The notes below the pieces were generated by a model. The model had not been told where the DNA came from. It searched no databases and was given only the letters and a program-made list of their open reading frames with translations. A stretch of DNA of 64,000 nucleotides. Origin: Lachnospiraceae bacterium. Lineage in GTDB: Bacteria > Bacillota_A > Clostridia > Lachnospirales > Lachnospiraceae. Positions 11,390 through 64,000 of the stretch are shown one piece after another. Numbering within the stretch: position 1 is the first letter of the stretch; each line of letters opens with the position of its first letter. The stretch is taken from assembly GCA_024690425.1 (NCBI GenBank), contig JAILCT010000180.1, positions 14,818 to 78,817 of the forward strand. Reading direction: 5' to 3'. The translations under genes were made by a program, and so were the position numbers.

Positions 11390-12853
11390 TCATCCTTTTT
11401 GAGCCTGTTTCTCCGATTCAGCCGCCTTAAGCATAGCGTCATACATTTCCCTGGTTATGTATGTGCCTGCTGCCGGAAACCTGGTCGGATTAATGGCACA
11501 GTCAAACTTGTCTATAAGTCCCTTCACCGAGTGGACCATTCCGTCCCACTCCTTACCGTATTCTGACCTCAGTCTTCTCCAGTCCGTATACATTATTATG
11601 GCATCCTTGTCACCCTTACCCTTCATTGTGGCTATGCCGGAGCCAAGATCATTACCCTCGTTATCATGCTTCATGGGGATTATAAACCTGGCCTTGAGCA
11701 TCTCAGCTCCCAGGAACCTGTAATACAGCCTGAAGTCAAGCGCCGCCTTATCATCATCCTTGTCCGGAGCATCCATCTGACCGATCAGGAGCATCCATTT
11801 TACAAGATCCGGATTCGTTACCGGTATGTTCTCGACCGGGATGCCCGAATGATCCGGCGCATCGGCAAGCATTCCTGCACTGATCGACACCTGCACGGCA
11901 TTGACGGCCGCACCGCATGCACCGTTTATATAGAAATTGCCGGCAAGGAAATTGGTTATCCCCTTCCTGTCGTCACCATTCCTTACAACGGCAAGCTCAG
12001 TCATGTCATTGTTATACAGCTTTCTGTAATGCCTCCTGTATGCCTTGGAAACCAGAAGTATGCTGGGTGGTGTACATATATAAGCCCCATCGCCGGCATC
12101 CACATTCTGTGAGAACAGATGGGCTTCACCGGTCCTCTTATCATGCACGTAGTATATCTCATCAGCATTCACTATCTTGCTGCACAGGGCCTTTATTATC
12201 TTATCGAGCCTCTTCTTCCGGTCATTGCTTACTTCTTCGTCTTCGTCCCTGCCTGCGTGATTCGTATACCAGATATTAAGCCGCCATATCTCCGAACAGT
12301 CGGTGATACTCAGCTTCTCAATCTCATCATCGGAAAGATCCAGCACCCTGTCCTTGACATAGGCATCTCCAAGTGCACTGACATAGGCATCATGTACTGC
12401 GTTCTCACCCATGTCACGTGTATAAAGGACTGTACCTACCCTGATATTCTTAACGGCTCCATCCTCAAGTATCATTGATACCAGGCAGTCGGTGGCACTC
12501 GTCACATTCTCGCCGTCCCTGTCTATTCCCTGAATAACAGTTACATCAGCTTCTCTCTTATCATCACCGAAATTAAGAAGCGAAACAGTCATACCGGCCT
12601 CGGCATTTCCCTTGAGATTACCTGTAACAACGATATTATCGGTTCCCTGTACCGGCTTGACATCAAGGATACCCATCACAAAGGATCCCCTGATAACATC
12701 CTCCTCTTCCTCCTCGGGTTCCGAAGGTCCTCCGTGGATCACATCGCCTACGATCCCGTCGTCAAGATCATTCACAAGAGAGCTCTCAAGTGCGTCTAAC
12801 TCTTCCTGCGCTGCCTCTTTCTTACCCTTCTTGAACTTATTGAATAAACCCAT
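11390..12853 (-). CDS. SseB-like domain protein with N-terminal EF-Tu-domain-2-like region
   Basis: 487 residues, soluble. After a basic N-terminus (GLFNKFKKGKK) and an acidic linker, residues about 55-150 resemble the beta-barrel domain 2 of translation GTPases (GSFVMGILDVKPVQGTDNIVV, GNLKGNAEAGM). The C-terminal third (about 340-480) resembles the SseB N-terminal family: KARFIIPM, IIMYTDWRRL and a closing INPTRFPAAGTYITREM. No enzymatic motif is visible and function is unknown. It sits between the ACT gene and coaBC, with its stop beside the coaBC start, so translation is probably coupled. Confidence 0.6.
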   Translation of the reverse strand: MGLFNKFKKGKKEAAQEELDALESSLVNDLDDGIVGDVIHGGPSEPEEEEEDVIRGSFVMGILDVKPVQGTDNIVVTGNLKGNAEAGMTVSLLNFGDDKREADVTVIQGIDRDGENVTSATDCLVSMILEDGAVKNIRVGTVLYTRDMGENAVHDAYVSALGDAYVKDRVLDLSDDEIEKLSITDCSEIWRLNIWYTNHAGRDEDEEVSNDRKKRLDKIIKALCSKIVNADEIYYVHDKRTGEAHLFSQNVDAGDGAYICTPPSILLVSKAYRRHYRKLYNNDMTELAVVRNGDDRKGITNFLAGNFYINGACGAAVNAVQVSISAGMLADAPDHSGIPVENIPVTNPDLVKWMLLIGQMDAPDKDDDKAALDFRLYYRFLGAEMLKARFIIPMKHDNEGNDLGSGIATMKGKGDKDAIIMYTDWRRLRSEYGKEWDGMVHSVKGLIDKFDCAINPTRFPAAGTYITREMYDAMLKAAESEKQAQKG

Positions 12854-22449: not shown

Positions 22450-23898
22450 TTAAGGCAGAACGAATACCTGTCCAATCTCTATCATGTTGGGATTACTTAT
22501 CTGACCCGAATTGGCTTCATATATCTCAACCCATCTTGATCCATCACCATAGTGCGCCCTGGCAATGTTCCACAGGCAGTCACCCTTGACAACCTTATAG
22601 GAATCACCGGATCCTTCGATCTCATCGGATGATTTACCGCTGTCTGAGGAAACATCCACTGTCTCTTCATTTCCCTTCTTTACATCCGATACAATCTCCT
22701 CTGCTTCTTCCTTCGCATCATTTATGATCTCTTCAGCATCATCCGTGGCATCTACTATGATTTCTTCAGCGTCGTCCTTCGCATCATTTATGATCTTTTC
22801 AGCATCGTCCTTAGCATCAACTATGATCGCTTCGGCATCTTCTTTTGCTTTATTTATGATCTCTTCTGCTTCTGCCCTGGCATCTTCAATGATCTTCTCA
22901 GCTTCTTCTGCCTCTTCACCCTGTGAATCTTCCGGCTCTTCCTCAGCCTCTTCCTCTGCAGCGGCAGCACGTATTTCTTCGGCTTCCTTTCTGGCGTCTT
23001 CGATCATAGCCTCGGCTTCAGCTTTTGCGATCGCCACTATCTCCTCAGCTTCCTGTTTTGCATCATCCAGTATAGCTGTCTCAAGCTCATCAGTTATATC
23101 CGCTTCATCGGATTTATCTTCTTCATCTATGTCTTCTTCGTCTATATCTTCTTCGTCTGCATCCGCTTCGTCTTCGTCTATGTCTGCTTCGTCTGCGTCT
23201 GCTTCCTCTTCGTCTATATCTTCTTCATCTGTGTCAGCTTCTTCTTCGTCTATATCTTCTTCATCCGTGTCAGCTTCCTCTTCATCTATATCTTCTTCAT
23301 CCGTGTCAGCTTCTTCTATATCTTCCTCTTCTGTATCTTCTTCCTCTTCATCTGGATCTTCTTTGTCTGCATCCTCTTCAACTTCTGCTTCTTCAGCTGC
23401 TTCTTTCTCCTCAGCTTCCACCTGTTCTACTGTCTTGGGAAGGTAATCATCAATATCTGTATCATCGTTAACAACGATTATCTCTACATTTGAGATACCC
23501 TTGGCCATTATCTTCTGGAATATAAGCATTCCCTGATTGTCGCTTCCTATGGTGGAAAGATAATCCGAAAGGTAACCCGAAACATCTCCTGTTATATTTA
23601 CATCGGTCTCTCCGTCCTTATTAACCTTAATATCAGCAGATATAACCTCGGCACCTGCATTCTCATAAATCTTTCTTAATTCTTCGATCTTGTCTTCCAC
23701 ATCGTCTTTGTCCCGGCTCGGATCGGCAAACAGTATCACAAGCTTTCCTGAATAATCGGAATATTCGCTTCCATCATTCTTTTCTGACGCAAATGCCTTA
23801 TCCGCATTAACGTATACACCTGTCGTCGACAATAATAAAGCACAGAGCATTATCCTTACCACTGCTCTTTTGATCATATTTTTTGTTTTTCTCTTCAT
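22450..23898 (-). CDS. Secreted acidic repeat protein with C-terminal LysM domain
   Basis: 482 residues. A signal peptide (basic MKRKTKNMIKR, hydrophobic stretch, cut near VNADKA) is followed by a folded region of about 110 residues containing KLVILFADPSRD. Next comes a tract of near-perfect acidic repeats of the type DTDEEDIDEEEA, then a long series of 11-residue units of the type DAEEIINDAKD predicted to form a coiled coil. The C-terminal 50 residues are a LysM domain (YKVVKGDCLWNIARAHYGDGS) that binds peptidoglycan. It is probably a wall-attached stalk protein. AGAGGGGA precedes the start. It has no close neighbours in its operon. Confidence 0.75.
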   Translation of the reverse strand: MKRKTKNMIKRAVVRIMLCALLLSTTGVYVNADKAFASEKNDGSEYSDYSGKLVILFADPSRDKDDVEDKIEELRKIYENAGAEVISADIKVNKDGETDVNITGDVSGYLSDYLSTIGSDNQGMLIFQKIMAKGISNVEIIVVNDDTDIDDYLPKTVEQVEAEEKEAAEEAEVEEDADKEDPDEEEEDTEEEDIEEADTDEEDIDEEEADTDEEDIDEEEADTDEEDIDEEEADADEADIDEDEADADEEDIDEEDIDEEDKSDEADITDELETAILDDAKQEAEEIVAIAKAEAEAMIEDARKEAEEIRAAAAEEEAEEEPEDSQGEEAEEAEKIIEDARAEAEEIINKAKEDAEAIIVDAKDDAEKIINDAKDDAEEIIVDATDDAEEIINDAKEEAEEIVSDVKKGNEETVDVSSDSGKSSDEIEGSGDSYKVVKGDCLWNIARAHYGDGSRWVEIYEANSGQISNPNMIEIGQVFVLP

Positions 23899-24909: not shown

Positions 24910-27900
24910 CTATGTGACTTTAAGGACAGACAGTATACCATCATAATCAAAATTCATGCTCAGTTCCCTGACCTTGTCAAGGAGCCCGCGTTCCTCATCC
25001 GGTAATACGTATCCCGAAATATCATCAAGCGCACTCTCTATCGAGTCTATATCCATGTTTGCGGCAGCCTCACGGATCGTATCACATACCACGCCGATAA
25101 GGTCGGCATCAGCCCGGGGGCTGTCCCCGTCTGTCCTGACCTTATCTTCCTTTTGGCATATATCCTTAAGGACTTCCTTAAACGAAAGATAATACGTTAT
25201 CAGCTTGTCATGATTTTCTTCTATATAAGATATATTGCCTTCCTTACCTGCATATTCAAGGGCAAGAGCCTCTCCCGCAAGACCTGCTGCACCTATTATA
25301 TTGGCCATGCTCTTAAGGGCATGGACCTTTATCGTATAGCCGGGCCAGTCCTTCCTCTCATACAGGTCCATAAGTTCACCCGATTTTTCATCGATCGAAT
25401 CGTAGAATATTTTAAGGGTATTGGAATAGTCCTCACAAGATCCGCTGTTCTTTATGCCTGCCTTGGAATCTATGCCCTCAAGATCCGAAAATCTCGGGTC
25501 TTCGATCATTCCCCCTACGATCCCTTCATATATATCGGTTTCTGTGCTTTCGGCTGTGCTGTATTTATCTCCCGGGAGGAAGTCCATCAACATAAGCTCC
25601 AGCTTTTTGCCATCTACGGGCTTGCTCAGATAATCGTCAAATCCCATTTCAATATAGTCATCCCGTGCCCCCGATATGGCATTGGCTGTCAGTATGATAC
25701 ATGGTTTTGTGCTGTTGGGATTCTCATGTGCACCCTTTATCCTGTTAAACAGTTCCAGGCCGTCCATACCCGGCATCATATGATCAAGAAGCAGAATGTC
25801 ATACTCATTTTCTTCAATGAGATTTAATGCTTCATCACCGCTAAGCGCAGTATCGATCCTTATGTGGGTCTGCTTGAGAAGGCCCCTTATGACCTTTAAG
25901 TTCATCTCGGCGTCATCAACAACAAGAATTCGCGCGTTTGGTGCCACGAAGCTTCGTGAGTAACCCGTCGCCTTCTCATCAGCTTTTCCCGGACTGTCCG
26001 CATCACCGACCTTTTCATCGGAAATGATACCCTGGTCAAGTTCAAATGAAAACTCCGAGCCCTCACCGTATTTACTTGACACTTCGAGCCTGCTGCCCAT
26101 CATTTCAAGAAGCTTCTGGACTATGCTCATGCCAAGGCCTGTTCCCTCAACAGTCCTGTTATGTTCAAGGTCTATCCTCTCAAATGCCCCGAACAGCCTG
26201 TCAAGATCGGCCTTTCTTATGCCTATTCCCGTATCCTTTATGCACACCCTTATCCTGGCCATGCGCCTGTCGCGTGACTTTAGCCCGATACTTAGCGATA
26301 CTCCTCCCCTTTCCGTGTATTTAACGGCATTTGTAAGGATATTGATCATGCATTGGGCAACCCTTACCGAGTCACCGAACAGATATCTGGGGGTATCTTC
26401 ACCGATACTTACATCTACCTTAAGGCCCTTGGCTTCAGCCCTTGGGGATATCATCTCTATTGCATCCTCAACCAGCTCAACGAGGTCATACTTGTCGGCA
26501 ACAAGCTCCATCTTTCCGGCTTCGATCTTGGAAAAATCAAGTATATTGTTAACAAGCGAGAGGAGTACATTGCCTGATCTCTTTATATTGGAAGCATATT
26601 CCCTGACAGGCTTCTCCCTGCTCTCCCTGAGTATCAGTTCGTCCATTCCGAGCACGGCGTTGATAGGTGTCCGTATCTCATGTGACATATTTGCCAGGAA
26701 TGCACTCTTTGCCTTGGTTGACTCCTCAGCTATACGGTTCCTGACTTCAAGCTCCTGAACCATGGTCTTTTCATAGTATATGCAGTTCTCTTTCTGGTTA
26801 AATCCGTTGTATATGGCGTATGCCATCTGTTTACAGGAATCATATCCGCAGCATGTGCAGTTTATGCTCCGGGATTCGGCGCTGAACTTGTTCATGCTGT
26901 TAAACACACGGTCAAGTTCATCATTACCGGGAGTATGGTATATGCAATCTCCCGACAGGTCACTGTAATTCCTTATATAATCATCAAGGTTGAGGTTCTC
27001 AAACTGTCTGTTATAGCTCTCGAGCCGTTCCTGCGGTGTATCGCTCCTTGACCACGGGCTCTTCGGAGTACTCTTCTTCGCCTCTTCTCTTATCCTCAGA
27101 AGCTCATATAAGGCCTCTTCTGTCTTGGATTTTTCGCTGTCAACAGCCGTACCGCATATACATCCTGCCGAACAGTTAAGTGCATCAATAAGAAGATACG
27201 GTGTTTCGGAGTTAATGATCTTTTCACTGTTGCGATGAAGCCATTCATACAGGTGTTTCTCACCTTCAACCTGACGGATAAAGATATCATCTCCCAGAAA
27301 CCATCTGACGTTCTCAGCCAGTCCTCCGGGGGTGGGATAATATGAACCAAGTCCGTATTCCACTTCACTTCCCGACGGCTGCCCTTCTATCTTATGTTCC
27401 TCAACATACTTCATCAGATGTTCAAATGTAACATTATATTGAACAAGGCCCTTATTGTTCGGATCATCGATCTCTATCTTCTTGGCTATGCATGGACTAA
27501 TAAAGGCGAACTTATCAGTGATCTTGAGTTCCTGTCTTGCATATATCGCGGCACACATAAGGGGGCTCTGTACCGGGAAGAGCTTGGGCAGGAGCTCCGG
27601 TATATAATGCTCTATGTATGACACTACCGCAGGGCATGGTTGCGATATCCCCCCGTAAAAATCATGCTCCTTTATGTAATTAAGATAACCCCATGTGGTG
27701 ATATCCGCGCCGAATGACACGCTCAAGATTCGGTTGACACCCATTGCCTTCAATCCGCCGAGAACCCTCTCGTACCGGTCCGGATAATTGGCCCTGAAGG
27801 CAGGTGCAAGAAGGAGTGATATGTTATCACCCCTCTTAAGATCATCAAAAAACCTGTCTGTATCATCGCTGAACTCACGGGCATGATGCTCACATACATC

Positions 27901-28056
27901 TATGCAGGACCCGCAGGCAACACACTTGCTGCCGTCGACAACTATACGCGACTTCCCGTTCTCCTGTTTAAAAATACACGCACCGATCGCCGAGCATACC
28001 TTAATACATTTATTACATCCTATGCAATTGTCATTGGTATAGACAATTGAATCCAT
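24910..28056 (-). CDS. [FeFe]-hydrogenase-like sensor fused to hybrid histidine kinase
   Basis: 1048 residues, no membrane segment. Order: two 4Fe-4S ferredoxin motifs (Cys 11/14/17/21 and 45/48/51/55); a hydrogenase large-subunit domain (about 75-310) with candidate H-cluster ligands Cys141 (SQPCP), Cys189 (SPCIAKK), Cys295 and Cys299 (NCSAGC); a further Fe-S motif (Cys400/403/408/425); HisKA with His459; an ATPase domain (DTGIGI, EGTGLGMSI); a receiver with Asp758; an HPt with His912; and a C-terminal domain shared with two other kinases here. The Cys preceding the first ligand, the proton-relay Cys of catalytic enzymes, is Pro140, and the usual TSCCP is QPCP. I infer a redox/H2-type sensor rather than a hydrogenase. 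Known sensory (group C) [FeFe]-hydrogenases are the nearest concept. It is the last gene of the four-gene operon, 6 bases after the response regulator. Confidence 0.9.
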   Translation of the reverse strand: MDSIVYTNDNCIGCNKCIKVCSAIGACIFKQENGKSRIVVDGSKCVACGSCIDVCEHHAREFSDDTDRFFDDLKRGDNISLLLAPAFRANYPDRYERVLGGLKAMGVNRILSVSFGADITTWGYLNYIKEHDFYGGISQPCPAVVSYIEHYIPELLPKLFPVQSPLMCAAIYARQELKITDKFAFISPCIAKKIEIDDPNNKGLVQYNVTFEHLMKYVEEHKIEGQPSGSEVEYGLGSYYPTPGGLAENVRWFLGDDIFIRQVEGEKHLYEWLHRNSEKIINSETPYLLIDALNCSAGCICGTAVDSEKSKTEEALYELLRIREEAKKSTPKSPWSRSDTPQERLESYNRQFENLNLDDYIRNYSDLSGDCIYHTPGNDELDRVFNSMNKFSAESRSINCTCCGYDSCKQMAYAIYNGFNQKENCIYYEKTMVQELEVRNRIAEESTKAKSAFLANMSHEIRTPINAVLGMDELILRESREKPVREYASNIKRSGNVLLSLVNNILDFSKIEAGKMELVADKYDLVELVEDAIEMISPRAEAKGLKVDVSIGEDTPRYLFGDSVRVAQCMINILTNAVKYTERGGVSLSIGLKSRDRRMARIRVCIKDTGIGIRKADLDRLFGAFERIDLEHNRTVEGTGLGMSIVQKLLEMMGSRLEVSSKYGEGSEFSFELDQGIISDEKVGDADSPGKADEKATGYSRSFVAPNARILVVDDAEMNLKVIRGLLKQTHIRIDTALSGDEALNLIEENEYDILLLDHMMPGMDGLELFNRIKGAHENPNSTKPCIILTANAISGARDDYIEMGFDDYLSKPVDGKKLELMLMDFLPGDKYSTAESTETDIYEGIVGGMIEDPRFSDLEGIDSKAGIKNSGSCEDYSNTLKIFYDSIDEKSGELMDLYERKDWPGYTIKVHALKSMANIIGAAGLAGEALALEYAGKEGNISYIEENHDKLITYYLSFKEVLKDICQKEDKVRTDGDSPRADADLIGVVCDTIREAAANMDIDSIESALDDISGYVLPDEERGLLDKVRELSMNFDYDGILSVLKVT

Positions 28057-28062
28057 TTAAGA

Positions 28063-28824
28063 TCACATCCTGCTTGCAAAAAATACCTTAAGCCACTGAA
28101 GCAGATCCGGCTTGGGAGTCGATTTTAGTATATAGCCGTCCGGTTTAAGGGCAATTACCTGCTTGACAGATTCCGCATCCCCTATACCGGTAAGGAACAC
28201 TACAGGTATACGGGCTGTTTCCGGCTCGCTCCTTAACATCCTGAGGACCTGCGGTCCCGTAGTTACAGGCATTTCATAGTCAAGAAGCACCAGGTCCACA
28301 TTCTTCTTCATCAGGAAGCTTATAGCCTGCATCCCGGATGTTACTATGAACACCTGATAGTCTGCCTTAAGCCAGTCCCTGACTATCCTTACAAAAGAAG
28401 GATCATCATCCACGACCAGTATGCTCTTGGAGGTCATACGGTTCTTGCGTATTTTCAGAACGGAACTGATTCCCGCAATAAAGCTGTCCATATCGAGCGG
28501 CCTGTCATACCACTCGGTTATCCTCACATCCGGTATCTGTATCTGCAGCGCCTGACGGTCAAGCCTCTCTCCGATCACGACCAGGTCCTTCTCTTTTTCC
28601 TTGACTATATCATTTATATATACGATTGTATCCCTGAGCTCATCAACGTCATCCGCCAGGTACAGGACGAACACTTCGGCCGCTTCTTCAAATGCACTTA
28701 TTGTCGTTACATCCGGTTCACAGGATACAACATCCATGCCCGCATCGCAAAGCTTGCGGTATACTCCCTTTACGATAACGCCGTGCGAATTGCTGATCAA
28801 TACAATCTTCCCGTTTTCTTCCAT
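28063..28824 (-). CDS. Double-receiver response regulator
   Basis: About 253 residues with no output domain. Residues 1-125 look like a receiver fold lacking the acidic phosphorylation set (pseudo-receiver). Residues 133-250 are a full receiver: ILVVDDDPS, the phospho-acceptor Asp near 182 (LVLLDYEMP) and a Lys in YILKSTPKP. It could shuttle phosphate between the hybrid kinases and their HPt domains in the same operon. The ATG at 28824 overlaps the upstream stop (TGATG); GTG at 28827 is also possible. AGGAGG lies upstream. Confidence 0.85.
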   Translation of the reverse strand: MEENGKIVLISNSHGVIVKGVYRKLCDAGMDVVSCEPDVTTISAFEEAAEVFVLYLADDVDELRDTIVYINDIVKEKEKDLVVIGERLDRQALQIQIPDVRITEWYDRPLDMDSFIAGISSVLKIRKNRMTSKSILVVDDDPSFVRIVRDWLKADYQVFIVTSGMQAISFLMKKNVDLVLLDYEMPVTTGPQVLRMLRSEPETARIPVVFLTGIGDAESVKQVIALKPDGYILKSTPKPDLLQWLKVFFASRM

Positions 28825-31800
28825 CACCTGCTGCCTCCTGCTTCTCTTATTGTATCCCTGATCCCTTCATAATCAAATTCTTCCGCATATTTCCTTATCT
28901 TATCCATAACACGTCCGACCTTGGCCGGCAATATATAGCCGTCAAGTTCCAAAAGTGCATCCTCAATACCGGATATATCCATGGCTTCTGCCGCTTCGCT
29001 TACCGCTTCGTACATGCTCTCGATTATATAATCATCTGCAACAGGCCCTTTCTTTATATCTCTCTCCTTCTCATCATCCTTTCCACACACCTCGTCAAGT
29101 ATATCCTTTAAGCTCAAGTAGTGCTTCATGAAGCCTTCGTGGTTGTTGCGGATATACTCTTCGTCCATCTCCTTGGATGCCGTTTCGAGTCTCTGAGCCT
29201 CATCACCCAGCGACTTGGCGCCTATTATACGGGCGGATGACTTCAGGGCATGAACGCGTATCCCGTATGATGCCCAGTCTTCCAGTTCATAGAAGTTCTC
29301 AATTTCCTTGTATTTCTCATCTATCGAATCATAGAATATCTCAAGGACAGGCTTGTATGATTCCTCTCCTCCGCAATTTCTGATACCTTCTTCCCCATCG
29401 ATCCCATCAAGCTTCTCATACCATTTAAGATCCGCCTCAGGAACATTATCATTCTCTTCTTCCGTTTTCTCGTGCGATACAGATGTATCAGCATCATCTT
29501 CTTCCCCGTAATCTGTCATCCGTTCGGTCTCTTCAGGTATCATAGCACTTAAGTTATAATGTCCCTCTCCCGTTTTCATATACAGGATACCGAATGTACC
29601 CGGACCGCAGTTGACAGCTGTAGTTGCGGATGCGGGCTGGAATACCAGCCGGTTTACTTCTATCCTCATCCTTATCTGTTCTTCTATCCAGTCAATCTCA
29701 TCCCGGCTCAGCCCGACATATGCGACTATGATAAGGTCCCTGTCTATTTCATGTTCATGTCCCTTTATTACATAATCGATATACCGCCTCCAAGCCCGGC
29801 TCATACTTCCGAACATGAGCCGGCCCGCTTCCATCCTGCCGTCCTTAAGCTGTATCACCGGATGAAGCATGAAGGACTTGGCAACCATGTTAAAGTTCTT
29901 GCTTATATGACCTGCCATGGCCATAAAATCCGTTTTACCGACTATATAAGTGCATGGGAATCTTTTCTTAAGTGCTTCCACTTCTTCGACTATGGCACCA
30001 ACATCATAATTCTGCAGGGCCATCCTGTACGCTGCAAGGACCAGCATGCCCATAGATCCCGACAGCCTTCCCGAGTCTATTATCGTTACATTACCGAAAG
30101 CCCTGGCTGCCTGAACTGCCCTGCCATATTCGCGAAGTGTATTTCCTGCTGCGGTTATATGTATAACATGCCTTGCCTTGTTGAGCTCGTTTGCAAAAAA
30201 CTGCTCTAAATCAATAATATCCGGGGACTGAGTCCTTGCAGTCCTTCCGCCTACCATCAGATACTTGGTAACCTCAGCGGCTTCTATCTCATGTTCGTCA
30301 AGGAATACACCCTTATCCGTACTTACCTTATAAGGAATAACCCCTATATTGAGGCTCCTTATGACGGATGCGGGCAGGTCGCACATCGAGCTTGTGGTGA
30401 TGGCTACGGACGATTTTCTGACGAAGGTTTCCGTTTCAACAACCGTCTCATCCTGCACAGAATCACTTGTCCTTAATACCTTATCCTTAGGCAGGTGCAA
30501 CAGGAGCATGGCTTCAAGCTGCTCTCCGGAAACAGGTTTACATAAATATCCCTCGAATCCTGAGATCCTGTATAACTCCTGATTCTGTGCCCCGGCATTT
30601 GCAGTAAGCACAATGACCGGTGTGGATCTGTTAAGACCGCCTGCCTGACCTCTGATATGGCCAAGGCACTCAATGCCGTTCATTTCCGGCATCAGGTGGT
30701 CCATAAGGATAACGTCATACTGCTTAAGAAGTGTGAGCCTTAGAGCCTCAGCTCCGCTCATCGCTGTCTCCACATCGATCCTGGTATCTGCAAGAAGCTT
30801 GGTTTCAACCCTTAAATTAAGTTCATTGTCATCAACAATAAGTACTGATGCTTCCGGTGCTTCAAAGCTCTGCTTATACAGGGGACGTTCATTCTTGCCG
30901 GCTTTATTGCCGATTATGATATTTCCGACTGCCTGGGGATTGATTATCGACTGTCTGAGCTTTACGACAAACGTGCTGCCCTGCATATATACGCTGTTGA
31001 CAGTGATCTCGCCTCCCATAAGATCCACAAGCTGTTTTACTATCGATAATCCAAGACCTGTTCCCTCTATATTTCTGTTTTTCTCCTCATCCATTCGTTT
31101 AAAGGCATCAAAAAGATGGGGGATGGCTTCCTTCTTGATCCCGATCCCTGTGTCGCTGACGGCAAAAGTCAGGATGACCTCATTATCGCCCATAGGGTCG
31201 CTCTCAACATAAAGCTTAACGAGCCCTTCATTGGTATACTTGATAGCATTGGTAAGGATATTGATAAGTATCTGCTTGATACGGACTTCATCACCGAACA
31301 GTTCTGTGGGTGTAGAAGGATCGATGTCTATCTTGAAGCGCAGGCCCTTGCTCTCCGCCCTTGCCCAGACCATGTTGACTATCTCCGAAAGTATGTCACC
31401 TATACAGTAGCTTACCGGTATAATATCCATATTACCGGACTCAAGCTTGCTCATATCAAGGATGTCATTGATTATGGCAAGAAGCATCCTGCCCGCTCCC
31501 TCGATGCTCCTCGAATCCCTGGCTACTTCTTCAGGTATGTCATTACGGCGTAATATGATCTCATTCAGACCCAGTATGGTACTGATAGGGGTACGGATCT
31601 CATGACTCATATTCGAGAAGAACTTATTCTGCGCCCAGTTAAGCCTTTCTACCTTCTGCGCCTCCTCTTTTGCCCTTTTATTCTCATCCGTGTACAGAAC
31701 ATTCTGAAAGGCAACCGCCGAATATGTAACAAAGCCCAGGACAATCACTGACACTGCCGCATCCGCATAGAACATAAACCTTGTATGTTCATGTATATAC

Positions 31801-32240
31801 TCCGGATAGATATATGATATCCTAAACTCTGCAAGTGTCATGATCGTAAGCAGGGCAAGCATGGCATATCTCCACGCTCCCTTCAATATAATACCTATAT
31901 AAAGATAGCAAAAGACGATCCATATGACTGCACCGCCAAAAAAACCGCCCCCAAAAAAGAAAACCACAGGCAGGATAAAAAACGTTATCGCAAGAGCAAT
32001 GATTATGGCACCGAGCTTAAGCCTGTTGAACTTAATGGCACATACTGCTATGATCGGTGTCATTATCAGGGTTATTCCAAGCACAACCGTCTCAACTATA
32101 TGCTCTCCTATGATTATGTCCCCGACAAATGCGCAGAAAAGGCCTGTGACACCTATTGCGGTTATCATGGAAAATACGCGTACGCTAAAGTCAATCCCGG
32201 GATTTCGTATAAAATCAATAAACCTTCTTATTGTTCTCAT
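28824..32240 (-). CDS. Membrane hybrid histidine kinase with internal DegV domain and HPt
   Basis: 1138 residues. About six membrane segments (20-180) with little extracellular sequence, then HisKA with His213 (MSHEIRTP), an ATPase domain (NAIKYT, DTGIGI, EGTGLGLSI) and a receiver with Asp514. Residues about 610-890 form a DegV-type fatty-acid-binding domain: ITTSSMCDLP, GVIPYKV, RTARTQSPD, IDSGRLSGSMGMLVLAA and GPGTFGILYM all line up with that family, although SSGLSGT is AAGNT and the last motif has Asn for His. An HPt with His997 and the shared C-terminal domain follow. I infer that a bound lipid-like ligand tunes the relay. Its start overlaps the upstream kinase (ATGA) and its stop overlaps the response regulator. 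Confidence 0.88.
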   Translation of the reverse strand: MRTIRRFIDFIRNPGIDFSVRVFSMITAIGVTGLFCAFVGDIIIGEHIVETVVLGITLIMTPIIAVCAIKFNRLKLGAIIIALAITFFILPVVFFFGGGFFGGAVIWIVFCYLYIGIILKGAWRYAMLALLTIMTLAEFRISYIYPEYIHEHTRFMFYADAAVSVIVLGFVTYSAVAFQNVLYTDENKRAKEEAQKVERLNWAQNKFFSNMSHEIRTPISTILGLNEIILRRNDIPEEVARDSRSIEGAGRMLLAIINDILDMSKLESGNMDIIPVSYCIGDILSEIVNMVWARAESKGLRFKIDIDPSTPTELFGDEVRIKQILINILTNAIKYTNEGLVKLYVESDPMGDNEVILTFAVSDTGIGIKKEAIPHLFDAFKRMDEEKNRNIEGTGLGLSIVKQLVDLMGGEITVNSVYMQGSTFVVKLRQSIINPQAVGNIIIGNKAGKNERPLYKQSFEAPEASVLIVDDNELNLRVETKLLADTRIDVETAMSGAEALRLTLLKQYDVILMDHLMPEMNGIECLGHIRGQAGGLNRSTPVIVLTANAGAQNQELYRISGFEGYLCKPVSGEQLEAMLLLHLPKDKVLRTSDSVQDETVVETETFVRKSSVAITTSSMCDLPASVIRSLNIGVIPYKVSTDKGVFLDEHEIEAAEVTKYLMVGGRTARTQSPDIIDLEQFFANELNKARHVIHITAAGNTLREYGRAVQAARAFGNVTIIDSGRLSGSMGMLVLAAYRMALQNYDVGAIVEEVEALKKRFPCTYIVGKTDFMAMAGHISKNFNMVAKSFMLHPVIQLKDGRMEAGRLMFGSMSRAWRRYIDYVIKGHEHEIDRDLIIVAYVGLSRDEIDWIEEQIRMRIEVNRLVFQPASATTAVNCGPGTFGILYMKTGEGHYNLSAMIPEETERMTDYGEEDDADTSVSHEKTEEENDNVPEADLKWYEKLDGIDGEEGIRNCGGEESYKPVLEIFYDSIDEKYKEIENFYELEDWASYGIRVHALKSSARIIGAKSLGDEAQRLETASKEMDEEYIRNNHEGFMKHYLSLKDILDEVCGKDDEKERDIKKGPVADDYIIESMYEAVSEAAEAMDISGIEDALLELDGYILPAKVGRVMDKIRKYAEEFDYEGIRDTIREAGGSR

Positions 32241-34336
32241 GCGCTCTTCCCTCCCCTGTCCTTAGTGAGAAAGGAGGCAAGCACCCTCTTCATTACCCTC
32301 TCAAATTCGCCCATGCCCACCGGCTTGGCTATGAAACCATCGAAGCCCTCAGCTATAAACATTTCCCTGGCCTCGCTGACTGCATTGGCCGTAAGAGCGA
32401 CTATGGCACATTCCCTGCCCATTTCATTGCTCATGACCCGCAGCCTCTTCATGGTTTCCACACCATCCATTTCAGGCATCATATGATCCATAAATATGAC
32501 ATCATATTCATTGTTACGGTACTTACGGAGTGCTTCCCTGCCGCTGCTTGCGACATCGGTTATCATTCCGTAATCCCTGAACAGACCCGAAGCCACAACA
32601 AGGTTCATTACCTCATCATCAACGATAAGAGCTCTGGCGCCTGTGAAATCCGGCTTCTCTTCCATCTCTCCAAGCCTCAGGTTTTCATAATCTTCACCTG
32701 CATTGATTATATTTATAAGAGAAAGCGCGTACAGGGGCTTGGGCATATGGAGAACATTGCTTCCCGCATCGGGTTTAAATCCATCCTGTGCGCATACGGC
32801 AACACAGAACCTCCTACTGATCTCATTAAAGAATCTCCTGTCTTCATCGTACTCTTCCCGGCCTGTAAAGAGGTTGGTCACATTCATCCTGTCGCATACA
32901 CTCTTAAGGCTCTTAAGATTGGTAACCGTGTGGACAGGAACCCTTAATCCATGTGACAGGTTCTCTATCATCCTGTGGTAATAGTCCCGTATCTCAGGAG
33001 TACTGTACTTCTCTGTTCTTATATAAACTACCACACATCTCCCGGCTCCGGAATCAACCTCAAGGCAGGGTTCATGCGCCGATACTTCCTGCGGAACACT
33101 GATTCGTATAAGAGTTCCCTTACCGGGTTCACTCTCTGTCTTTACAAAGCCGTTCATCGCATGTACGGTGCCGTATACTATAGTGAATCCAAGACCGATG
33201 CCGCCGGTCGAGCGGTCTCTTCCCTTATCGGCCTGAAACAGGTTACTTGACAGCAGGAGCTTGTCTTCACTTGTCATTCCCTTACCCGTATCCGCTACTT
33301 CTATGTCAAGATTTACACCATAATCACGAGGCACAGCGGATACCCTCAGATTAATGCAGCCTCTATCGGTAAACTTAATGGAATTGGACAGAAGGTGTTT
33401 TATGATCTTCTTTATCCTTACCGGGTCTCCGATCAGCTGGGCAGGGACATTCGGGTCAAGATCAACTATAAATTCCAGCTTCTTCTGTTCCATCATCGGT
33501 GCCTCGGACTCGATCACATCATTTACGATCGAAGTGATCATGTACTTTACTTTGCCAATGTGGAGCCTTCCTCCCAGTATTTCGTTGTAATCAAGGATAT
33601 CACCGACCTGATCGGCGAGGCGCTCTCCAGCTTCGTTTATGGCAATTACACGTTCATCCTTACCCTCATTCATCATAAGGGCAGACATACCTGTAACAAC
33701 ATTTATCGGCGTACGGAATTCATGTGATATGTTTGACAGGAAATCTTCCATGCTCTCATTGGCCTTCCTGGCCTCATCTATATAGAGTTCCATTCCCTGC
33801 CTGGTCTTATGCCGCTGGTCTATGGCATATTTGCATATATTGTATACTATCACGACCGCACATAAGTGAAGAAATATCCTGGAAACGGTAAGCGTATCCC
33901 TGGATATCCCTCCATTTCTTGATGCAAGATAGAACTGTGCACATTCCACTGCGACGAATTCGAGCATCGCATAATCCTGATACCGCTTCTTGTCGGCCCC
34001 CGAAAGAGTTATCATCATAAGAACAGAAATCAGCGCAACATCAAAAAAGCTGGTGTAATGAACTCCGTGGAACAGGGCCGCAGTCATGATAAAGGCAACG
34101 TAAAATGACTCCCTTATTTCGGGGGTATACAGCTGCAGAACATAAAAAACCCACATCAGCACGATACCCAGCGCAATAACAGGCAGCATCCAGAACTCCC
34201 ATTTTAGGAGTATACCCTCAACTATCAGGGCGGTAGCTCCAAGCGTTCCGACAAGTATCATGATCAAATGCAGGTTCATCAGTCGGTTATCGTCATTTAT
34301 GGTCGAACCCTTAAGGGTTCCTATCGGCTTGTTCAT
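32237..34336 (-). CDS. Membrane hybrid histidine kinase
   Basis: 699 residues. Five or six membrane segments (20-170), HisKA with His205 (ISHEFRTP), and an ATPase domain (NSIKFT, ADTGKGM, GGIGLGFTI). Residues about 430-555 look like a receiver-like domain lacking a clear phospho-acceptor, followed by a true receiver with Asp617 (YDVIFMDHMMPEMDG) and Lys in FIAKPVG. There is no HPt, so phosphate would leave through HPt domains of the two other hybrids. First gene of the operon; GGGAG precedes the ATG. Confidence 0.9.
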   Translation of the reverse strand: MNKPIGTLKGSTINDDNRLMNLHLIMILVGTLGATALIVEGILLKWEFWMLPVIALGIVLMWVFYVLQLYTPEIRESFYVAFIMTAALFHGVHYTSFFDVALISVLMMITLSGADKKRYQDYAMLEFVAVECAQFYLASRNGGISRDTLTVSRIFLHLCAVVIVYNICKYAIDQRHKTRQGMELYIDEARKANESMEDFLSNISHEFRTPINVVTGMSALMMNEGKDERVIAINEAGERLADQVGDILDYNEILGGRLHIGKVKYMITSIVNDVIESEAPMMEQKKLEFIVDLDPNVPAQLIGDPVRIKKIIKHLLSNSIKFTDRGCINLRVSAVPRDYGVNLDIEVADTGKGMTSEDKLLLSSNLFQADKGRDRSTGGIGLGFTIVYGTVHAMNGFVKTESEPGKGTLIRISVPQEVSAHEPCLEVDSGAGRCVVVYIRTEKYSTPEIRDYYHRMIENLSHGLRVPVHTVTNLKSLKSVCDRMNVTNLFTGREEYDEDRRFFNEISRRFCVAVCAQDGFKPDAGSNVLHMPKPLYALSLINIINAGEDYENLRLGEMEEKPDFTGARALIVDDEVMNLVVASGLFRDYGMITDVASSGREALRKYRNNEYDVIFMDHMMPEMDGVETMKRLRVMSNEMGRECAIVALTANAVSEAREMFIAEGFDGFIAKPVGMGEFERVMKRVLASFLTKDRGGKSA

Positions 34337-34377: not shown

Positions 34378-34406
34378 ATTATACAATTTTTCAGTGTCTT
34401 TTACAA
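34378..34406 (-). promoter_or_regulatory. Promoter of the four-gene phosphorelay operon
   Basis: TTGTAA (34401-34406), a 17-base spacer and TATAAT (34378-34383) on the minus strand, 42 bases upstream of the first kinase gene. No terminator or further promoter is visible down to 24910. Confidence 0.7.
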
Positions 34407-60041: not shown

Positions 60042-60647
60042 CTAAATAGTCATAAAGTTTTTAAGTATCGTAAGGCCCACCGATGAGGATTTCTCCGGAT
60101 GGAACTGGCAGGCAAACACATTATCCTTCTCGACCGAAGCGTGAATACAGGTATTGTACTGAGTTTCTGCCTTTACGATGCTGTCATCGGCCGCCTTCAG
60201 ATAATAGGAATGAACGAAATAAACATAGGCTCCTTCATCAATCCCCTTATAGAGCCTTCCGTCATTCTTAAGATGCAGCGAATTCCAGCCCATATGGGGG
60301 ATCTTTTCATATTCTCCCTTGGGTATCCTTAAGATATCTCCCTTAAGAAGGGACAGGCCCTTAACTCCCGGAGCCTCTTCACTTGTATCAAACATAAGCT
60401 GGAGGCCCAGACATATTCCCAAAAAAGGAGTGCCATCCCCGACTACTTCCTTTATAACCTCTTCAAGTCCGTAGCCGCGGATCCTGTTCATGGCATCCCC
60501 GAAAGCACCTACGCCGGGCAGAATGACCTTGTCCGCATTAAGGATCTTATCCGGATCCCTCGTGACTAATACCTCTCCGCCAAGGTACATAATGGCCTTC
60601 TCAACACTCTTTATATTTCCAGCATCATAATCAATCACTGCGATCAT
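60042..60647 (-). CDS. hisH: Imidazole glycerol phosphate synthase, glutaminase subunit
   Basis: 201 residues, a class-I glutaminase. The catalytic triad is visible: Cys in FLGICLGLQLMF and His-x-Glu in ACQFHPEKSS. It supplies ammonia to HisF. The start overlaps the stop of the acidic repeat protein (ATGA), an unusual neighbour for a histidine gene. Confidence 0.97.
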   Translation of the reverse strand: MIAVIDYDAGNIKSVEKAIMYLGGEVLVTRDPDKILNADKVILPGVGAFGDAMNRIRGYGLEEVIKEVVGDGTPFLGICLGLQLMFDTSEEAPGVKGLSLLKGDILRIPKGEYEKIPHMGWNSLHLKNDGRLYKGIDEGAYVYFVHSYYLKAADDSIVKAETQYNTCIHASVEKDNVFACQFHPEKSSSVGLTILKNFMTI

Positions 60648-63600
60648 AACTCATCCTCAAATTCCGATTCCTCACCCTCTATAACGGGATTGGTCACAAG
60701 ATCCTCCTCTGTTTCCTCCACTTCCTCCGTTTCCTGAGGCTGGACATCCCCGGACGGCTCAAGGAAATCATGCAGGGCCCACGTATAGGCCTGCGAATCC
60801 TCTATCGCCAGGAAGGTCCTGGCCTGGGCCGGCGATAAGGAGAATGTTGTATTAAGCTCCGAATTTATCTGGTTCTCGTAGCTTGTAAACTGTTCGCCGA
60901 TACCGTACTGTTGAGCACTCTCACGGTCCGCATCAACTTCCTTAAGTGCCTGTACAAGGGCATTGAGAGCATCTATCCTCATTCCCATCTTAAGGTAATT
61001 CCTGTAGGAACGAAGCCTTGTTTCAAGCTTATATAGGATCAGGTTCTTATTATAGAGCTCCTGCTGCTCTTCGTTCAGCCTGTGGCCCGTAAGTGACATA
61101 TATGTTGAGGCATAATCACCCTCTTCGAATGCCACATGAGCGTTGCCCACGTCATTGTAATACGGTATTACCATGGCAGCCATGCCTATAAGTATACCTA
61201 CCGAAAGGTTAAAGGCCATTATGAGACCTACCTTCTTCTTGGGAAGTTTGGGCATCTTGAGAAGCTCAGTATCTCTGGGTTTCTTTTCCTTCTTGACCTT
61301 TTCCTTTTTGGGCTTCTTCTCTTTCTTTTCCTTGGGCTTTTTCTCTTTCTTAGGCTTCTTTTCCTTCTTTCCTTTCTTCTTGCCCTTTCCTTCCTCTTCC
61401 TCGTCGCCCAGTTCCTTTAAGATCTGCTCGTTATCGGCAGCTCCGGCCTTGGCGATATCGGTGGCTGATTCCTCGGCAAATACAAGAGGTATCTCCTCCC
61501 CCTGCTCATCGGGAACCTCAGTGAGGCTTTCTATCACTCGTGCGAAGAAGCCTTTCTTGGCCTTCTTCCTGGAAGCGGCCTCATCACCATTTTCAACCAC
61601 CTCAAGATCCACACCCTCGTATTCGGGTATGTCGGTAAACTCAAGTCCCGCAAGAGCCGTATCCATATCTGCCTTAAGCTCGGCTTCCTCCGGCGTGAGC
61701 TCTTCCTCGGTCTTTACTTCAACTTCAGGATCTACTGCACCTTTCTTCCTGTTCTTCTTTTCTTCCTTTTCCCTGCGTTTTCTTTCTTTTTCGGCTTCCT
61801 TGGCGGCCTTTTTAGCCTCTTTTTCCTTTTTGCGTCTCTCGGCAGGACTCAGATCTTCCTCTGACTCCTCATCATCGCCGTCAATATCGGGAAGCGTTAC
61901 CTCTTCCTTTTCAAGGGCTCCGGGATCGACAGCCTCAAAATTATCGTTCTTCTCAAGCAGGTCTCCGATCTCGGATATCTCTGTGTCATCCGAATCCGCA
62001 AGCATCGCATCAAGATCAACATCCTCTTGTGCGGGCGCATTGGTCGGATCTCCCATATCCTCTATTGATTTAAGAAGGGAATCTATCTCTTCCTCGGTCA
62101 TTATCTCATCGCCCGGGGCAGATCCTGCTTCTTCTTTCTCTTCCGTTGCTTCTTCTGATGTATCCCCTGCCTCTTCCGCTTCATCCGAAGGAAGTTCGGG
62201 TATTTCATCCGCAGGGATCTCATCTACGGGAACCTCGTCAACAGATATATCTTCTGCAGGAGCTTCCTCAGCAGGAGTTTCCTCAGCAGGAACATCTTCA
62301 TCTCCGAAGGAAGTTGTAAGATCGATATTGCCTTCTTCTCCTTCTTCAACGGGTGTATCCTCAATCGGAAGCTCATCTGCGGGGATCGCGTCTGCCGGGA
62401 TCTCTTCCGCAGGTATCTCTTCTGCAGGTATCTCTTCTGTGGGTATTTCTTCCTCTACTACAGGAACTTCTTCTGCTGCAGGTTCTTCCACAGGTATTTC
62501 CTCTACTGCAGGGATTTCTTCTGTGGGTATTTCTTCTGTGGGCTGATCTTCTACAGCAGGCTCATCTGCAGAAATCTCCTCCGCCGGTGCTTCCTCTGCC
62601 GCTTCAGCTGCATCGAGGGTCTCATTGATCATATCCGCAATTTCGGCTATCTCGGCCGATGCTTCATCAGCTGCCGTGTCGTCTATTATGGAGTCAACAA
62701 GACCAATATCCTCAAGGACCTTTTCTTCCTCAGTCTTCTCTTCTGTTATCTCCGGTATTATATCCCGGATCTCGGTATCGGATATCTCTGTTTCTGACGC
62801 AGGTATCTCAGGTTCAGTTTCTGCTGTTTCAGGAGCCTCGTCCTCGGCCTCTTCGATCTCTTCGGGGATCTCCGTCTCGACATCCGCAGCCGGAACCTCT
62901 ATATCGGCAAGGCCTGCCAGCATCTCATCCGTATTGTCGGCTATATCATCGAATCCCGGAACATTAACTTCAATATCATCTATAGATGTGATCTTCTTGG
63001 CTTCCGGTGTCTCGGCCGCCAGGGTTTCATCGACATCATCCAGGATACCGTCAAGGACTGACAGATCTATATCATCTTTGGAAACATCCTTCTTCAGCTT
63101 AACATCAGACAGGGTTTCATTTATCTCGGCCTTGACATCGTCATCTTTTAAGCGGTTGAATATAGCTTCTATCTCCTCCGCTTCTTCTTTTTCCTTCTTC
63201 TTCTCTTCCTTCTTGTCAAATGCAGCGAGAAGGGCTTCCATCTCGGCTTCCGACATGGTGTCTTCTTCCTCAACTGCAGGTGTTTCCTCTACTACTGCAG
63301 GGATCTCTTCCTCAACTACCGGAACCTCTTCTGCTGTAGGTTCTTCTACTGGTATCTCCTCTACTACAGGGATTTCCTCTTCTATAGCCGAAACTTCCTC
63401 TTCAACTACAGGGATCTCTTCCTCAACTGCAGGAGCTTCTTCTACTACCGGTTCTTCTACAGGGATTTCCTCTACTTCAGGAATTTCTTCTTCTACAGCC
63501 GGAACTTCCTCTTCTACAACGGGTATCTCTTCTTCAACTGCAGGAACCTCTTCTACTACAGGCTCTTCTACAGGGATTTCCTCTGCTTCAGGAATTTCTT

Positions 63601-64000
63601 CTTCTACAGCAGGAACTTCCTCTTCTACCACAGGGATTTCCTCTTCTACTGCAGGAACTTCCTCCTCTACAGCAGGAACCTCTTCCTCCACTGCAGGGAT
63701 TTCTTCTACGGCCGGAACTTCCTCCTCTACAGCAGGAATCTCTTCTTCCACTGCAGGAGCTTCTTCTACTACAGGTTCTTCTACTGGTATTTCCTCTACT
63801 GCAGGGATCTCATCCTCTACAGCCGGAACTTCTTCTTCAACTACCGGCTCTTCTATAGAAACTTCCACTTCCTCTACAGGAACCTCCTCAACTACAGTTT
63901 CTACTTCCGCTTCTTCGGGCACTTCCTCGACCGGCACTTCCTCAACTGCCGCTTCCTCAACAACCTCCTCGGTCTTCTCAGGGAAATCAAGTCCGGGTAT
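60644..64000 (-). CDS. Giant acidic Val/Glu/Pro repeat membrane protein (5' end beyond window)
   Basis: The frame is open to the right edge, so the N-terminus is missing; at least 1118 residues are visible. Residues up to about 245 consist of repeats of the type VPAVEEEIP. A long acidic low-complexity region follows (about 245-700), then a Lys/Glu-rich tract with GKKKGKKEKKPKKEKKP, one membrane segment (VGLIMAFNLSVGILIGMAAM) and an outer or C-terminal domain of about 170 residues with helical, TPR-like features. No family is recognised. The domain order loosely recalls FimV-like polar scaffold proteins, but no homology is claimed. It overlaps hisH by 4 bases. Confidence 0.6.
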   Translation of the reverse strand: MPGLDFPEKTEEVVEEAAVEEVPVEEVPEEAEVETVVEEVPVEEVEVSIEEPVVEEEVPAVEDEIPAVEEIPVEEPVVEEAPAVEEEIPAVEEEVPAVEEIPAVEEEVPAVEEEVPAVEEEIPVVEEEVPAVEEEIPEAEEIPVEEPVVEEVPAVEEEIPVVEEEVPAVEEEIPEVEEIPVEEPVVEEAPAVEEEIPVVEEEVSAIEEEIPVVEEIPVEEPTAEEVPVVEEEIPAVVEETPAVEEEDTMSEAEMEALLAAFDKKEEKKKEKEEAEEIEAIFNRLKDDDVKAEINETLSDVKLKKDVSKDDIDLSVLDGILDDVDETLAAETPEAKKITSIDDIEVNVPGFDDIADNTDEMLAGLADIEVPAADVETEIPEEIEEAEDEAPETAETEPEIPASETEISDTEIRDIIPEITEEKTEEEKVLEDIGLVDSIIDDTAADEASAEIAEIADMINETLDAAEAAEEAPAEEISADEPAVEDQPTEEIPTEEIPAVEEIPVEEPAAEEVPVVEEEIPTEEIPAEEIPAEEIPADAIPADELPIEDTPVEEGEEGNIDLTTSFGDEDVPAEETPAEEAPAEDISVDEVPVDEIPADEIPELPSDEAEEAGDTSEEATEEKEEAGSAPGDEIMTEEEIDSLLKSIEDMGDPTNAPAQEDVDLDAMLADSDDTEISEIGDLLEKNDNFEAVDPGALEKEEVTLPDIDGDDEESEEDLSPAERRKKEKEAKKAAKEAEKERKRREKEEKKNRKKGAVDPEVEVKTEEELTPEEAELKADMDTALAGLEFTDIPEYEGVDLEVVENGDEAASRKKAKKGFFARVIESLTEVPDEQGEEIPLVFAEESATDIAKAGAADNEQILKELGDEEEEGKGKKKGKKEKKPKKEKKPKEKKEKKPKKEKVKKEKKPRDTELLKMPKLPKKKVGLIMAFNLSVGILIGMAAMVIPYYNDVGNAHVAFEEGDYASTYMSLTGHRLNEEQQELYNKNLILYKLETRLRSYRNYLKMGMRIDALNALVQALKEVDADRESAQQYGIGEQFTSYENQINSELNTTFSLSPAQARTFLAIEDSQAYTWALHDFLEPSGDVQPQETEEVEETEEDLVTNPVIEGEESEFEDEL

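What the first reader, a model, noticed from the sequence alone, without database searches (positions are those of the whole stretch)
24910..28056. Iron-sulfur hydrogenase-like sensor fused to a full kinase-receiver-HPt chain
Seen: two ferredoxin motifs, an [FeFe]-hydrogenase-type domain with four conserved candidate H-cluster Cys (141, 189, 295, 299), a further four-Cys motif (400-425), then HisKA, ATPase, receiver and HPt in one chain. The first loop is QPCP rather than TSCCP, so the Cys that relays protons in catalytic hydrogenases is missing. Known: sensory [FeFe]-hydrogenases exist. Inference: this is a direct H2 or redox sensor whose signal enters a phosphorelay in one polypeptide. The complete fusion is unusual.
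Basis: partly seen in the sequence, partly recalled or inferred. Interest (0 to 1): 0.88.

Follow-up and report, generated by a model that had tools for sequence, protein, structure and literature searches.

The report
Hydrogenase-like sensor fused to kinase
This bacterial signalling protein uses a recycled hydrogen-handling enzyme as its sensor and wires it straight into a phosphate-relay switch; it is one member of a named but barely studied class, and it sits in a conserved cluster of kinases that probably work together.

Summary
Confirmed: window 24910-28056 (minus strand) encodes 1048 aa: two [4Fe-4S] motifs, an [FeFe]-hydrogenase H-domain with all four H-cluster Cys, a Cx2Cx4Cx16C cluster, HisKA-HATPase-REC and a weak HPt. 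AlphaFold and fold search place residues 1-370 in the hydrogenase fold. The pocket (CpI C299->Pro, M353->Ser, M497->Leu) resembles putative sensory, PAS-less enzymes such as TamHydS. The fusion is not unusual: 106 of 120 listed proteins (query included) share sensor-HK-REC-HPt. In trees the module forms its own clade, in which kinase, chemoreceptor and c-di-GMP outputs were exchanged. New here: a conserved cluster (DegV-domain kinase and double-receiver protein each in 12 of 16 fully flanked kinase-type loci, 0 of 22 others), orthologues lacking the ATPase, and a fusion with the double-receiver protein. These suggest a multi-kinase relay rather than a self-contained chain. H2 is the best-guess signal but unproven: 15 of 33 genomes with the kinase-type sensor have no HydE, HydF or HydG above profile cut-offs, yet their sensor pocket is conserved. 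Verdict: new variant of a known kind.

The parts
24910..28056 (-). 1048-aa [FeFe]-hydrogenase-type sensor, HisKA-HATPase-REC-HPt hybrid kinase (the finding)
27877..28047 (-). two N-terminal [4Fe-4S] ferredoxin motifs (residues 4-60)
   Evidence: Pfam Fer4 hits; Cys 11/14/17/21/45/48/51/55 present in 41 of 41 kinase-type ORFs
27151..27816 (-). H-domain (residues 81-302) with H-cluster Cys 141, 189, 295, 299; QPCP, SPCIAKKIE and DALNCSAGC loops
   Evidence: Pfam; CpI alignment; AlphaFold and fold search
26782..26859 (-). C-terminal four-Cys motif C400-x2-C403-x4-C408-x16-C425
   Evidence: sequence; conserved 41 of 41 kinase-type ORFs
26623..26781 (-). predicted continuous helix 426-478 joining the last cluster Cys to the phospho-acceptor helix (H459)
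   Evidence: AlphaFold: helix 426-453 at high confidence; helix 426-478 in a lower-confidence 700-aa model
26032..26712 (-). HisKA (449-514) and HATPase_c (561-675)
25594..25929 (-). receiver domain (710-821), D758
25216..25416 (-). HPt domain (881-947), H912; weak Pfam score, VHALKS motif
28063..28827 (-). 254-aa double-receiver-like protein (RR2): only the C-terminal half matches Response_reg; 6 bp upstream of the sensor gene
   Evidence: conserved neighbour; fused to the sensor kinase in P0020
28824..32240 (-). 1138-aa membrane hybrid kinase with a DegV domain (612-889) between REC and HPt; overlaps RR2 by 4 bp
   Evidence: conserved neighbour; five hydrophobic segments by a crude scan
32237..34336 (-). 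699-aa membrane hybrid kinase (HisKA-HATPase-REC), first gene of the presumed operon, 4-bp overlap with the next
34378..34406 (-). sigma-70-like promoter match TTGTAA-17-TATAAT upstream of the four-gene run
   Evidence: consensus match only, (3 found, 1.5 expected by shuffling)

Best explanation
It is a cytosolic hybrid histidine kinase whose input is a non-catalytic or weakly catalytic [FeFe]-hydrogenase module. SHOWN by sequence and prediction: hydrogenase fold, complete Fe-S and H-cluster ligand set, loss of catalytic proton-relay residues, a direct junction (no PAS found) through a predicted helix to the phospho-acceptor domain, the phosphorelay residues, and a conserved cluster with two membrane hybrid kinases (one with a DegV domain) and a double-receiver protein. 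INFERRED: H2, or the reduced-ferredoxin pool in balance with it, sets the redox or ligand state of the H-cluster. This shifts the module and its C-terminal [4Fe-4S] domain, moves the helix 426-478, and changes phosphorylation of H459 (in cis, or in trans by the neighbouring kinases). Phosphate then passes to D758, H912 and the shared receiver protein, so that fermentation redox state is integrated with the signals read by the two membrane kinases.
Against: No H2, redox or kinase measurement exists for any member here. 15 of 33 genomes with the kinase-type sensor have none of HydE/F/G over the profile cut-offs, and sensor presence is not associated with HydG across the family (23 of 45 with the sensor, 74 of 175 without; Fisher p 0.32). 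In TamHydS the C-terminal cluster does not respond to H2 (PMC13104023 abstract), so a redox relay through that cluster is doubtful. No other hydrogenase gene turned up among the 24 window ORFs scanned. 4 of 16 fully flanked kinase-type loci lack the DegV kinase. The helix junction is at low confidence in the longer model. The four-gene run itself holds no DNA-binding output.
Confidence: 0.5

Rival explanations
1. Maturase-independent Fe-S redox sensor: the module keeps only the [4Fe-4S] half of the H-cluster (which needs no HydEFG) plus three other cubanes, and reads ferredoxin redox state or a small ligand, not H2.
For: 15 of 33 kinase-type genomes have none of HydE/F/G over the cut-offs, including the isolates XBB2008 (G008) and Butyrivibrio sp. 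CB08 (G025); a Lachnospiraceae HydG query finds nothing in either. H-cluster Cys, P140, S187, K192 and L293 are the same in 16 HydEFG-positive and 15 HydEFG-negative sensors, and the negatives are not more variable overall (228 invariant columns against 207 of 440). Negatives cluster on the sensor tree: 5 changes against a shuffled mean of 10.6, 0 of 500 shuffles as low; 14 of 15 lie in one 19-row subclade.
Against: That subclade has support 84 only and also holds 3 positives; starred branches force just 1 change. K192, equivalent of the CpI lysine near a cyanide ligand (role recalled), is invariant in negatives too, which a [2Fe]-free sensor would not need. HydEFG-negative genomes often also hold catalytic-looking hydrogenases with TSCCP, so missing HydEFG may mean another maturation route or assembly gaps. 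L001, nearest to the window protein among searched genomes, is HydEFG-positive.
Confidence: 0.25
2. The module is mainly a partner in a hetero-kinase complex: the neighbouring membrane kinases supply the phosphate, and the hydrogenase-like protein only gates or scaffolds the relay to the double-receiver protein. (Partly compatible with the best explanation.)
For: ATPase-less orthologues keep HisKA, REC and HPt; conserved cluster; fusion with the double-receiver protein and with a dCache kinase.
Against: 37 of 41 kinase-type locus ORFs keep the HATPase, and the window protein has recognisable ATP-binding motifs; several kinase-type loci show no cluster neighbour in the stretch held, some of them short.
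Confidence: 0.3
3. It is a working hydrogenase that happens to carry a kinase: slow H2 turnover is the function.
For: TamHydS and TmHydS, with altered pockets, are slow but active enzymes (PMC8163306 introduction read; PMC10055695 passages).
Against: No redox-partner gene among the 24 window ORFs scanned; CpI proton-relay Glu282 falls in a four-residue gap, Glu279 in or beside it, and C299 is Pro; kinase, MCP and c-di-GMP outputs are exchanged while the module stays.
Confidence: 0.05

Closest known systems
TamHydS (Thermoanaerobacter mathranii, group D / M2e [FeFe]-hydrogenase)
   Same: Two N-terminal [4Fe-4S] motifs, H-domain, Cx2Cx4Cx16C, no PAS; Ser and Leu at the M353 and M497 positions.
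   Different: TamHydS is stand-alone. Its C-terminal residues E392-D393 are matched in 5 of 5 stand-alone proteins L143-L147, and D403 in 3 of 5, but none of them in the window protein. In the tree the fused family is apart from that set.
TmHydS and PAS-bearing group C (M2f, HydDB C3-like) enzymes
   Same: Putative sensory, C299 lost, C-terminal four-Cys motif.
   Different: Those carry PAS and TmHydS has Gly/Ser at M353/M497; the window protein has no PAS hit and has Ser/Leu, and falls in another clade.
HydDB groups C1 'histidine kinase-linked (putative)' and C2 'chemotactic (putative)'
   Same: H2 sensing proposed, linked to histidine kinases or to MCPs. The module family here holds both kinds of output.
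   Different: HydDB sequences could not be compared. In one described C1 case the kinase is a separate gene (Vallitalea peg.4378/4376). Hydrogenedentota C1 proteins carry a HATPase domain but the authors hardly found H-cluster motifs; here all four Cys are present.
[NiFe] group 2b/2c regulatory hydrogenases
   Same: A hydrogenase used as H2 sensor with a histidine kinase (2b) or diguanylate cyclase (2c, putative) output.
   Different: Unrelated metal site; here sensor and kinase are one chain.
Tripartite hybrid kinases (BarA, TorS, ArcB)
   Same: HisKA-HATPase-REC-HPt order; best NCBIfam kinase scores BarA 331 and TorS 323 bits.
   Different: Far under those families' cut-offs (890 and 676.5 bits); Fe-S input in the cytosol instead.

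Membership tests
[FeFe]-hydrogenase H-domain superfamily | H-domain sequence and fold | tested here: met
[FeFe]-hydrogenase H-domain superfamily | four H-cluster cysteines | tested here: met
   C141/189/295/299; present in 82 of 82 related ORFs
[FeFe]-hydrogenase H-domain superfamily | bound H-cluster with [2Fe] subsite | not testable with these tools
   needs FTIR/EPR; maturases present in G001 (nearest searched genome), absent in many others
Catalytic group A/B enzymes | TSCCP proton-relay Cys | tested here: not met
   P140 at the C299 position
Putative sensory groups C/D | C-terminal Cx2Cx4Cx16C and loss of C299 | tested here: met
   C400/403/408/425, P140; definition from PMC8163306
PAS-type group C (TmHydS, C3-like) | PAS domain after the C-terminal cluster | tested here: not met
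   no PAS in the Pfam scan at E 0.01; predicted helix right after the cluster
Group D (TamHydS) | Ser/Thr at M353, no PAS | tested here: met
   S187, no PAS
Group D (TamHydS) | C-terminal E392-D393 and D403, and placement with the stand-alone set | tested here: not met
   residues differ; the fused family is a separate 100/100 clade. The TamHydS sequence itself was not available; L143-L147 stood in for it
HydDB C1/C2 | k-NN placement in HydDB | not testable with these tools
   no HydDB sequences held; the kinase-type clade is nested among MCP-linked sequences in a fast tree
Tripartite hybrid histidine kinase | H, ATP-binding, D and HPt-H in one chain | tested here: met
   H459, N/G boxes, D758, H912; HPt below the Pfam cut-off

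The most novel reading that the evidence does not exclude
A lineage of Lachnospiraceae has kept a complete [FeFe]-hydrogenase sensor, pocket conserved, after losing HydE, HydF and HydG: either the hydrogenase fold senses redox or a ligand with only its [4Fe-4S] half and no [2Fe] cofactor, or these bacteria build the H-cluster by an unknown route. The module drives a multi-kinase relay that also reads a DegV-type ligand domain.
Probability: 0.2. Interest if true: 0.82.

Novelty: new variant of a known kind. Interest (0 to 1): 0.56.

Why it matters
How sensory [FeFe]-hydrogenases pass on their signal is open: the TamHydS authors ask it outright and can only point to a kinase-like and a regulator gene beside the enzyme (PMC8163306 passages). 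Here a similar PAS-less module is covalently joined to a histidine kinase, to a chemoreceptor tail and to c-di-GMP enzymes, so a ligand response could be read as simple phosphorylation. H2 level is central to rumen fermentation and methane, and many of the relatives come from rumen samples. The mismatch between sensor and maturases offers a natural test of whether the [2Fe] half of the H-cluster is needed at all.

Tried and rejected
Pseudogene or chance assembly: rejected; full-length relatives at 88% identity and below with the motifs kept. MCP-type relatives first taken by me for phosphatase-linked ones: wrong, the nine scanned without a kinase carry MCPsignal, MCP-REC, GGDEF or GGDEF-EAL. 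Group D membership: first suggested by the Ser/Leu pocket, dropped after the C-terminal residues and the tree. A fatty-acid signal for the neighbouring DegV domain: weakened; where the two aligned DegV structures read a TSQP-like motif, SS-like and H, the window reads RTQSP, AA and N (the roles of those residues are recalled). Change of the sensor in HydEFG-negative genomes: 3 columns (62, 180, 361) are invariant in positives with 3 or more deviants in negatives, none of them a cluster ligand; position 120 differs in frequency (T 6, C 10 in positives; T 14, C 1 in negatives). N-box/G2-box patterns are strict; 8 of 41 locus ORFs fail them while still matching the HATPase, so I use only the HATPase count. 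Withheld sequence as cause of missing HydEFG: no N in 460,704 bases taken from G008, overlaps included, which does not exclude it elsewhere. Of 46 HydG-negative genomes with strong hydrogenase matches, 13 hold HydF (the other 4 genomes of that call were G008 and G025, both without HydF, and G048 and G132, HydG-positive): such mixed cases are probably assembly breaks. Completeness of single genomes is not printed although 90 was asked for. The VIA-align table barely covers residues beyond about 370, so I claim nothing on the fold of the C-terminal cluster domain. Papers asked for and not held: Greening 2016 and Zheng 2014. That this cluster is not described in print rests on ten searches of an open-access library only.

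Rows dropped: the fast tree left out ORFs with a sensor match under 60 bits or under 330 residues (so 4 of 5 stand-alone group D rows) and two duplicate loci (L112, L133; the identical pair L060/L116 stayed in), and used 5 of 10 group A and 5 of 14 group B rows; the careful tree used 47 rows chosen by me, with all five group D rows. HydE/F/G were tested in 39 genomes reached from 40 chosen loci of 80, and HydG/HydF, not HydE, in 44 of the 45 sensor-bearing genomes (the 45th, G008, is). One search tested 118 of the 120 listed proteins (those with a kinase H-box or HATPase match). The cross-table uses handles that I copied.
Full report
1. WHAT IS THERE. The ORF runs from 28056 down to 24910 on the minus strand, ATG to stop, 1048 aa. 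Pfam finds, in order, Fer4 motifs (within 4-60), Fe_hyd_lg_C (81-302, 92.1 bits), FeS PF04060 (398-427, 22.1 bits, cut-off 23), HisKA (449-514), HATPase_c (561-675), Response_reg (710-821) and a weak Hpt (881-947, 16.6 bits, cut-off 24.6). A crude hydropathy scan finds no membrane segment, so the protein is probably cytosolic. The window's source is not told; the names of the nearest relatives point to Lachnospiraceae.

3. HOW COMMON AND HOW CONSERVED. The protein search scored 7996 candidates (a capped set), of which 5230 match residues 1-440; the best 120, the query included, are listed. Of those 120, 92 are sensor-HK-REC-HPt-tail, 12 the same without tail, 1 has a further double receiver (P0020), 1 an N-terminal dCache kinase (106 with HPt in all), 10 have an RR2-like C terminus in place of HPt (15 to 62 bits), 3 end at REC and 1 is a GGDEF protein; all 120 have Pro and Ser at the C299 and M353 positions. 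A scan of GTDB species genomes with this one protein gave 281 relatives, the best 80 kept; most titles say Lachnospiraceae, a few Eubacterium, Butyrivibrio, Roseburia, Oscillospiraceae and the like, and many name rumen samples. In 82 ORFs of these 80 loci the H-cluster Cys, P140, S187 and K192 are invariant (41 of 41 kinase-type, 41 of 41 others). 'Unusual' is therefore not right for the fusion.

4. OUTPUTS ARE EXCHANGED. Other ORFs carry MCPsignal, MCP-REC, GGDEF or GGDEF-EAL after the same module. A fast tree of 133 rows puts the window protein in a supported 46-row set (42 kinase, 3 GGDEF, 1 truncated) nested among MCP-linked rows; the kinase label needs 7 changes, at least 5 forced by starred branches, though FastTree stars deserve less trust where long rows are present. 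A careful tree of 47 chosen rows gives a 100/100 clade for the whole effector-fused family, apart from group A, group B, the PAS-bearing group C type and the stand-alone group D type; there the kinase label needs 7 changes (5-7 in bootstraps) but only 2 are forced by starred branches. Exchange of outputs is well supported; its exact number is not.

5. THE CLUSTER. In the window four genes run together on the minus strand with 4-bp overlaps or a 6-bp gap: a 699-aa membrane hybrid kinase, a 1138-aa membrane hybrid kinase with a DegV domain and HPt, a 254-aa double-receiver-like protein, and the sensor kinase. A promoter-like match lies about 42 bases upstream of the first (consensus only). Among kinase-type loci with at least 8 kb upstream and 6.5 kb downstream, the DegV kinase is present in 12 of 16, the double-receiver protein in 12 of 16 and the 699-aa type in 10 of 16; among other sensor loci each is 0 of 22 (any kinase at all: 14 of 16 and 2 of 22). 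Over all 41 kinase-type loci, short ones included, the counts are 19, 19 and 15. L011, L019, L024 and L033 are fully flanked and lack the DegV kinase. Gene order varies between loci, which makes plain synteny of a whole region a poor explanation.

6. MECHANISM. A direct helix from the Fe-S domain to the kinase is therefore likely, not shown. Two facts speak for action across chains: the HATPase is missing in 4 of 41 kinase-type locus ORFs (L008, L009, L010, L014), each in a locus with ATPase-bearing kinases of the cluster, and in 12 of 118 listed homologues tested; and P0020 fuses the whole sensor kinase to the double-receiver protein (134 bits). I infer a relay in which several kinases feed one set of receivers. 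In 4 of 41 loci a REC-GGDEF gene is also near, so c-di-GMP is a possible end of the chain; in the window no such gene adjoins.

7. WHAT IT SENSES. H2 is the natural guess and was proposed for groups C and D as a whole. In Ruminococcus albus a group C enzyme is co-transcribed with H2-regulated genes (PMC6776011 passages). Against a simple H2 story: of 39 genomes with the module, 17 have HydE, HydF and HydG over the cut-offs, 18 none, 4 a mixture; of the 33 with the kinase type, 16, 15 and 2. The negatives include the isolates XBB2008 and CB08. A HydG query from a Lachnospiraceae relative (G018) was run on 36 genomes: G018 itself, 4 that lack HydG but hold HydF, and 31 without HydG and HydF over the cut-offs (HydE tested in 13 of these); outside G018 only 5 genomes match at all, at 32% identity or less. 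Negatives cluster on the sensor tree, though the subclade that holds 14 of 15 has support 84 and also 3 positives, and the ligand and key pocket residues do not differ. The anomaly is wider than the sensor: in 220 Lachnospiraceae genomes 201 hold a strong [FeFe]-hydrogenase match (E 1e-45 or better) but only 97 hold HydG, and none of the 19 without such a match has HydG. Hackmann and Firkins (PMC4478896 passages) had already noted a lone HydA large subunit in 20 butyrivibrio genomes and favoured Ech for H2. I cannot decide between real loss, assembly breaks, withheld sequence or another maturation route; the window's own genome is not held, and the nearest relative searched is maturase-positive.

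8. COMPARISON AND NOVELTY. HydDB already lists 'C1 histidine kinase-linked (putative)' and 'C2 chemotactic (putative)' (PMC5037454 passages); Hydrogenedentota C1 proteins with a HATPase domain and C3 proteins with a kinase domain are in print (PMC11406978 passages). So the kind is known. I found no description, in ten searches of an open-access library, of the PAS-less module with exchangeable outputs, of the conserved DegV-kinase/double-receiver cluster, of ATPase-less orthologues, or of the maturase mismatch; subscription papers were out of reach. I class it as a new variant of a known kind, interest 0.56.

Noticed in passing
window 28824-32240 (-): Hybrid kinase with a DegV (FakB-type) domain between REC and HPt, conserved near the sensor kinase; positions that read TSQP-like, SS-like and H in the aligned DegV structures are changed, so it may bind something other than fatty acid.
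   Followed up: partly
Real loss, assembly gaps or another maturation route.
   Followed up: partly
L008 9992-12649, L009 and L010 9992-12637, L014 6238-8886: Orthologues of the sensor kinase with no HATPase match but with HisKA, REC and HPt, each in a locus with ATPase-bearing kinases.
   Followed up: yes
L029 7667-12160, L035 7604-12163, protein P0037: About 1500-aa chains with an N-terminal dCache plus kinase part fused in front of the hydrogenase-type sensor kinase: two inputs in one chain.
   Followed up: partly
L046 4832-7264, L055 9989-12355, L060 9974-12349: Hydrogenase-type module fused to an MCP signalling domain and a receiver in one protein.
   Followed up: no
L109 1491-4501, L123, L124, L127, L129: More distant hydrogenase-type modules fused to HK-REC chains, possibly separate origins of the kinase fusion.
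   Followed up: partly
window 22450-23898 (-): 482-aa protein with a LysM domain and a long Asp/Glu-rich repeat region.
   Followed up: no
window 11390-12853 (-) and 60644-63937 (-): Long ORFs (487 and 1097 aa) without a Pfam match at E 1e-4.
   Followed up: no
L063 (G038:C59:138450-139748): The sensor match in the Roseburia hominis record reads through one in-frame TGA; possible broken gene, described only.
   Followed up: no
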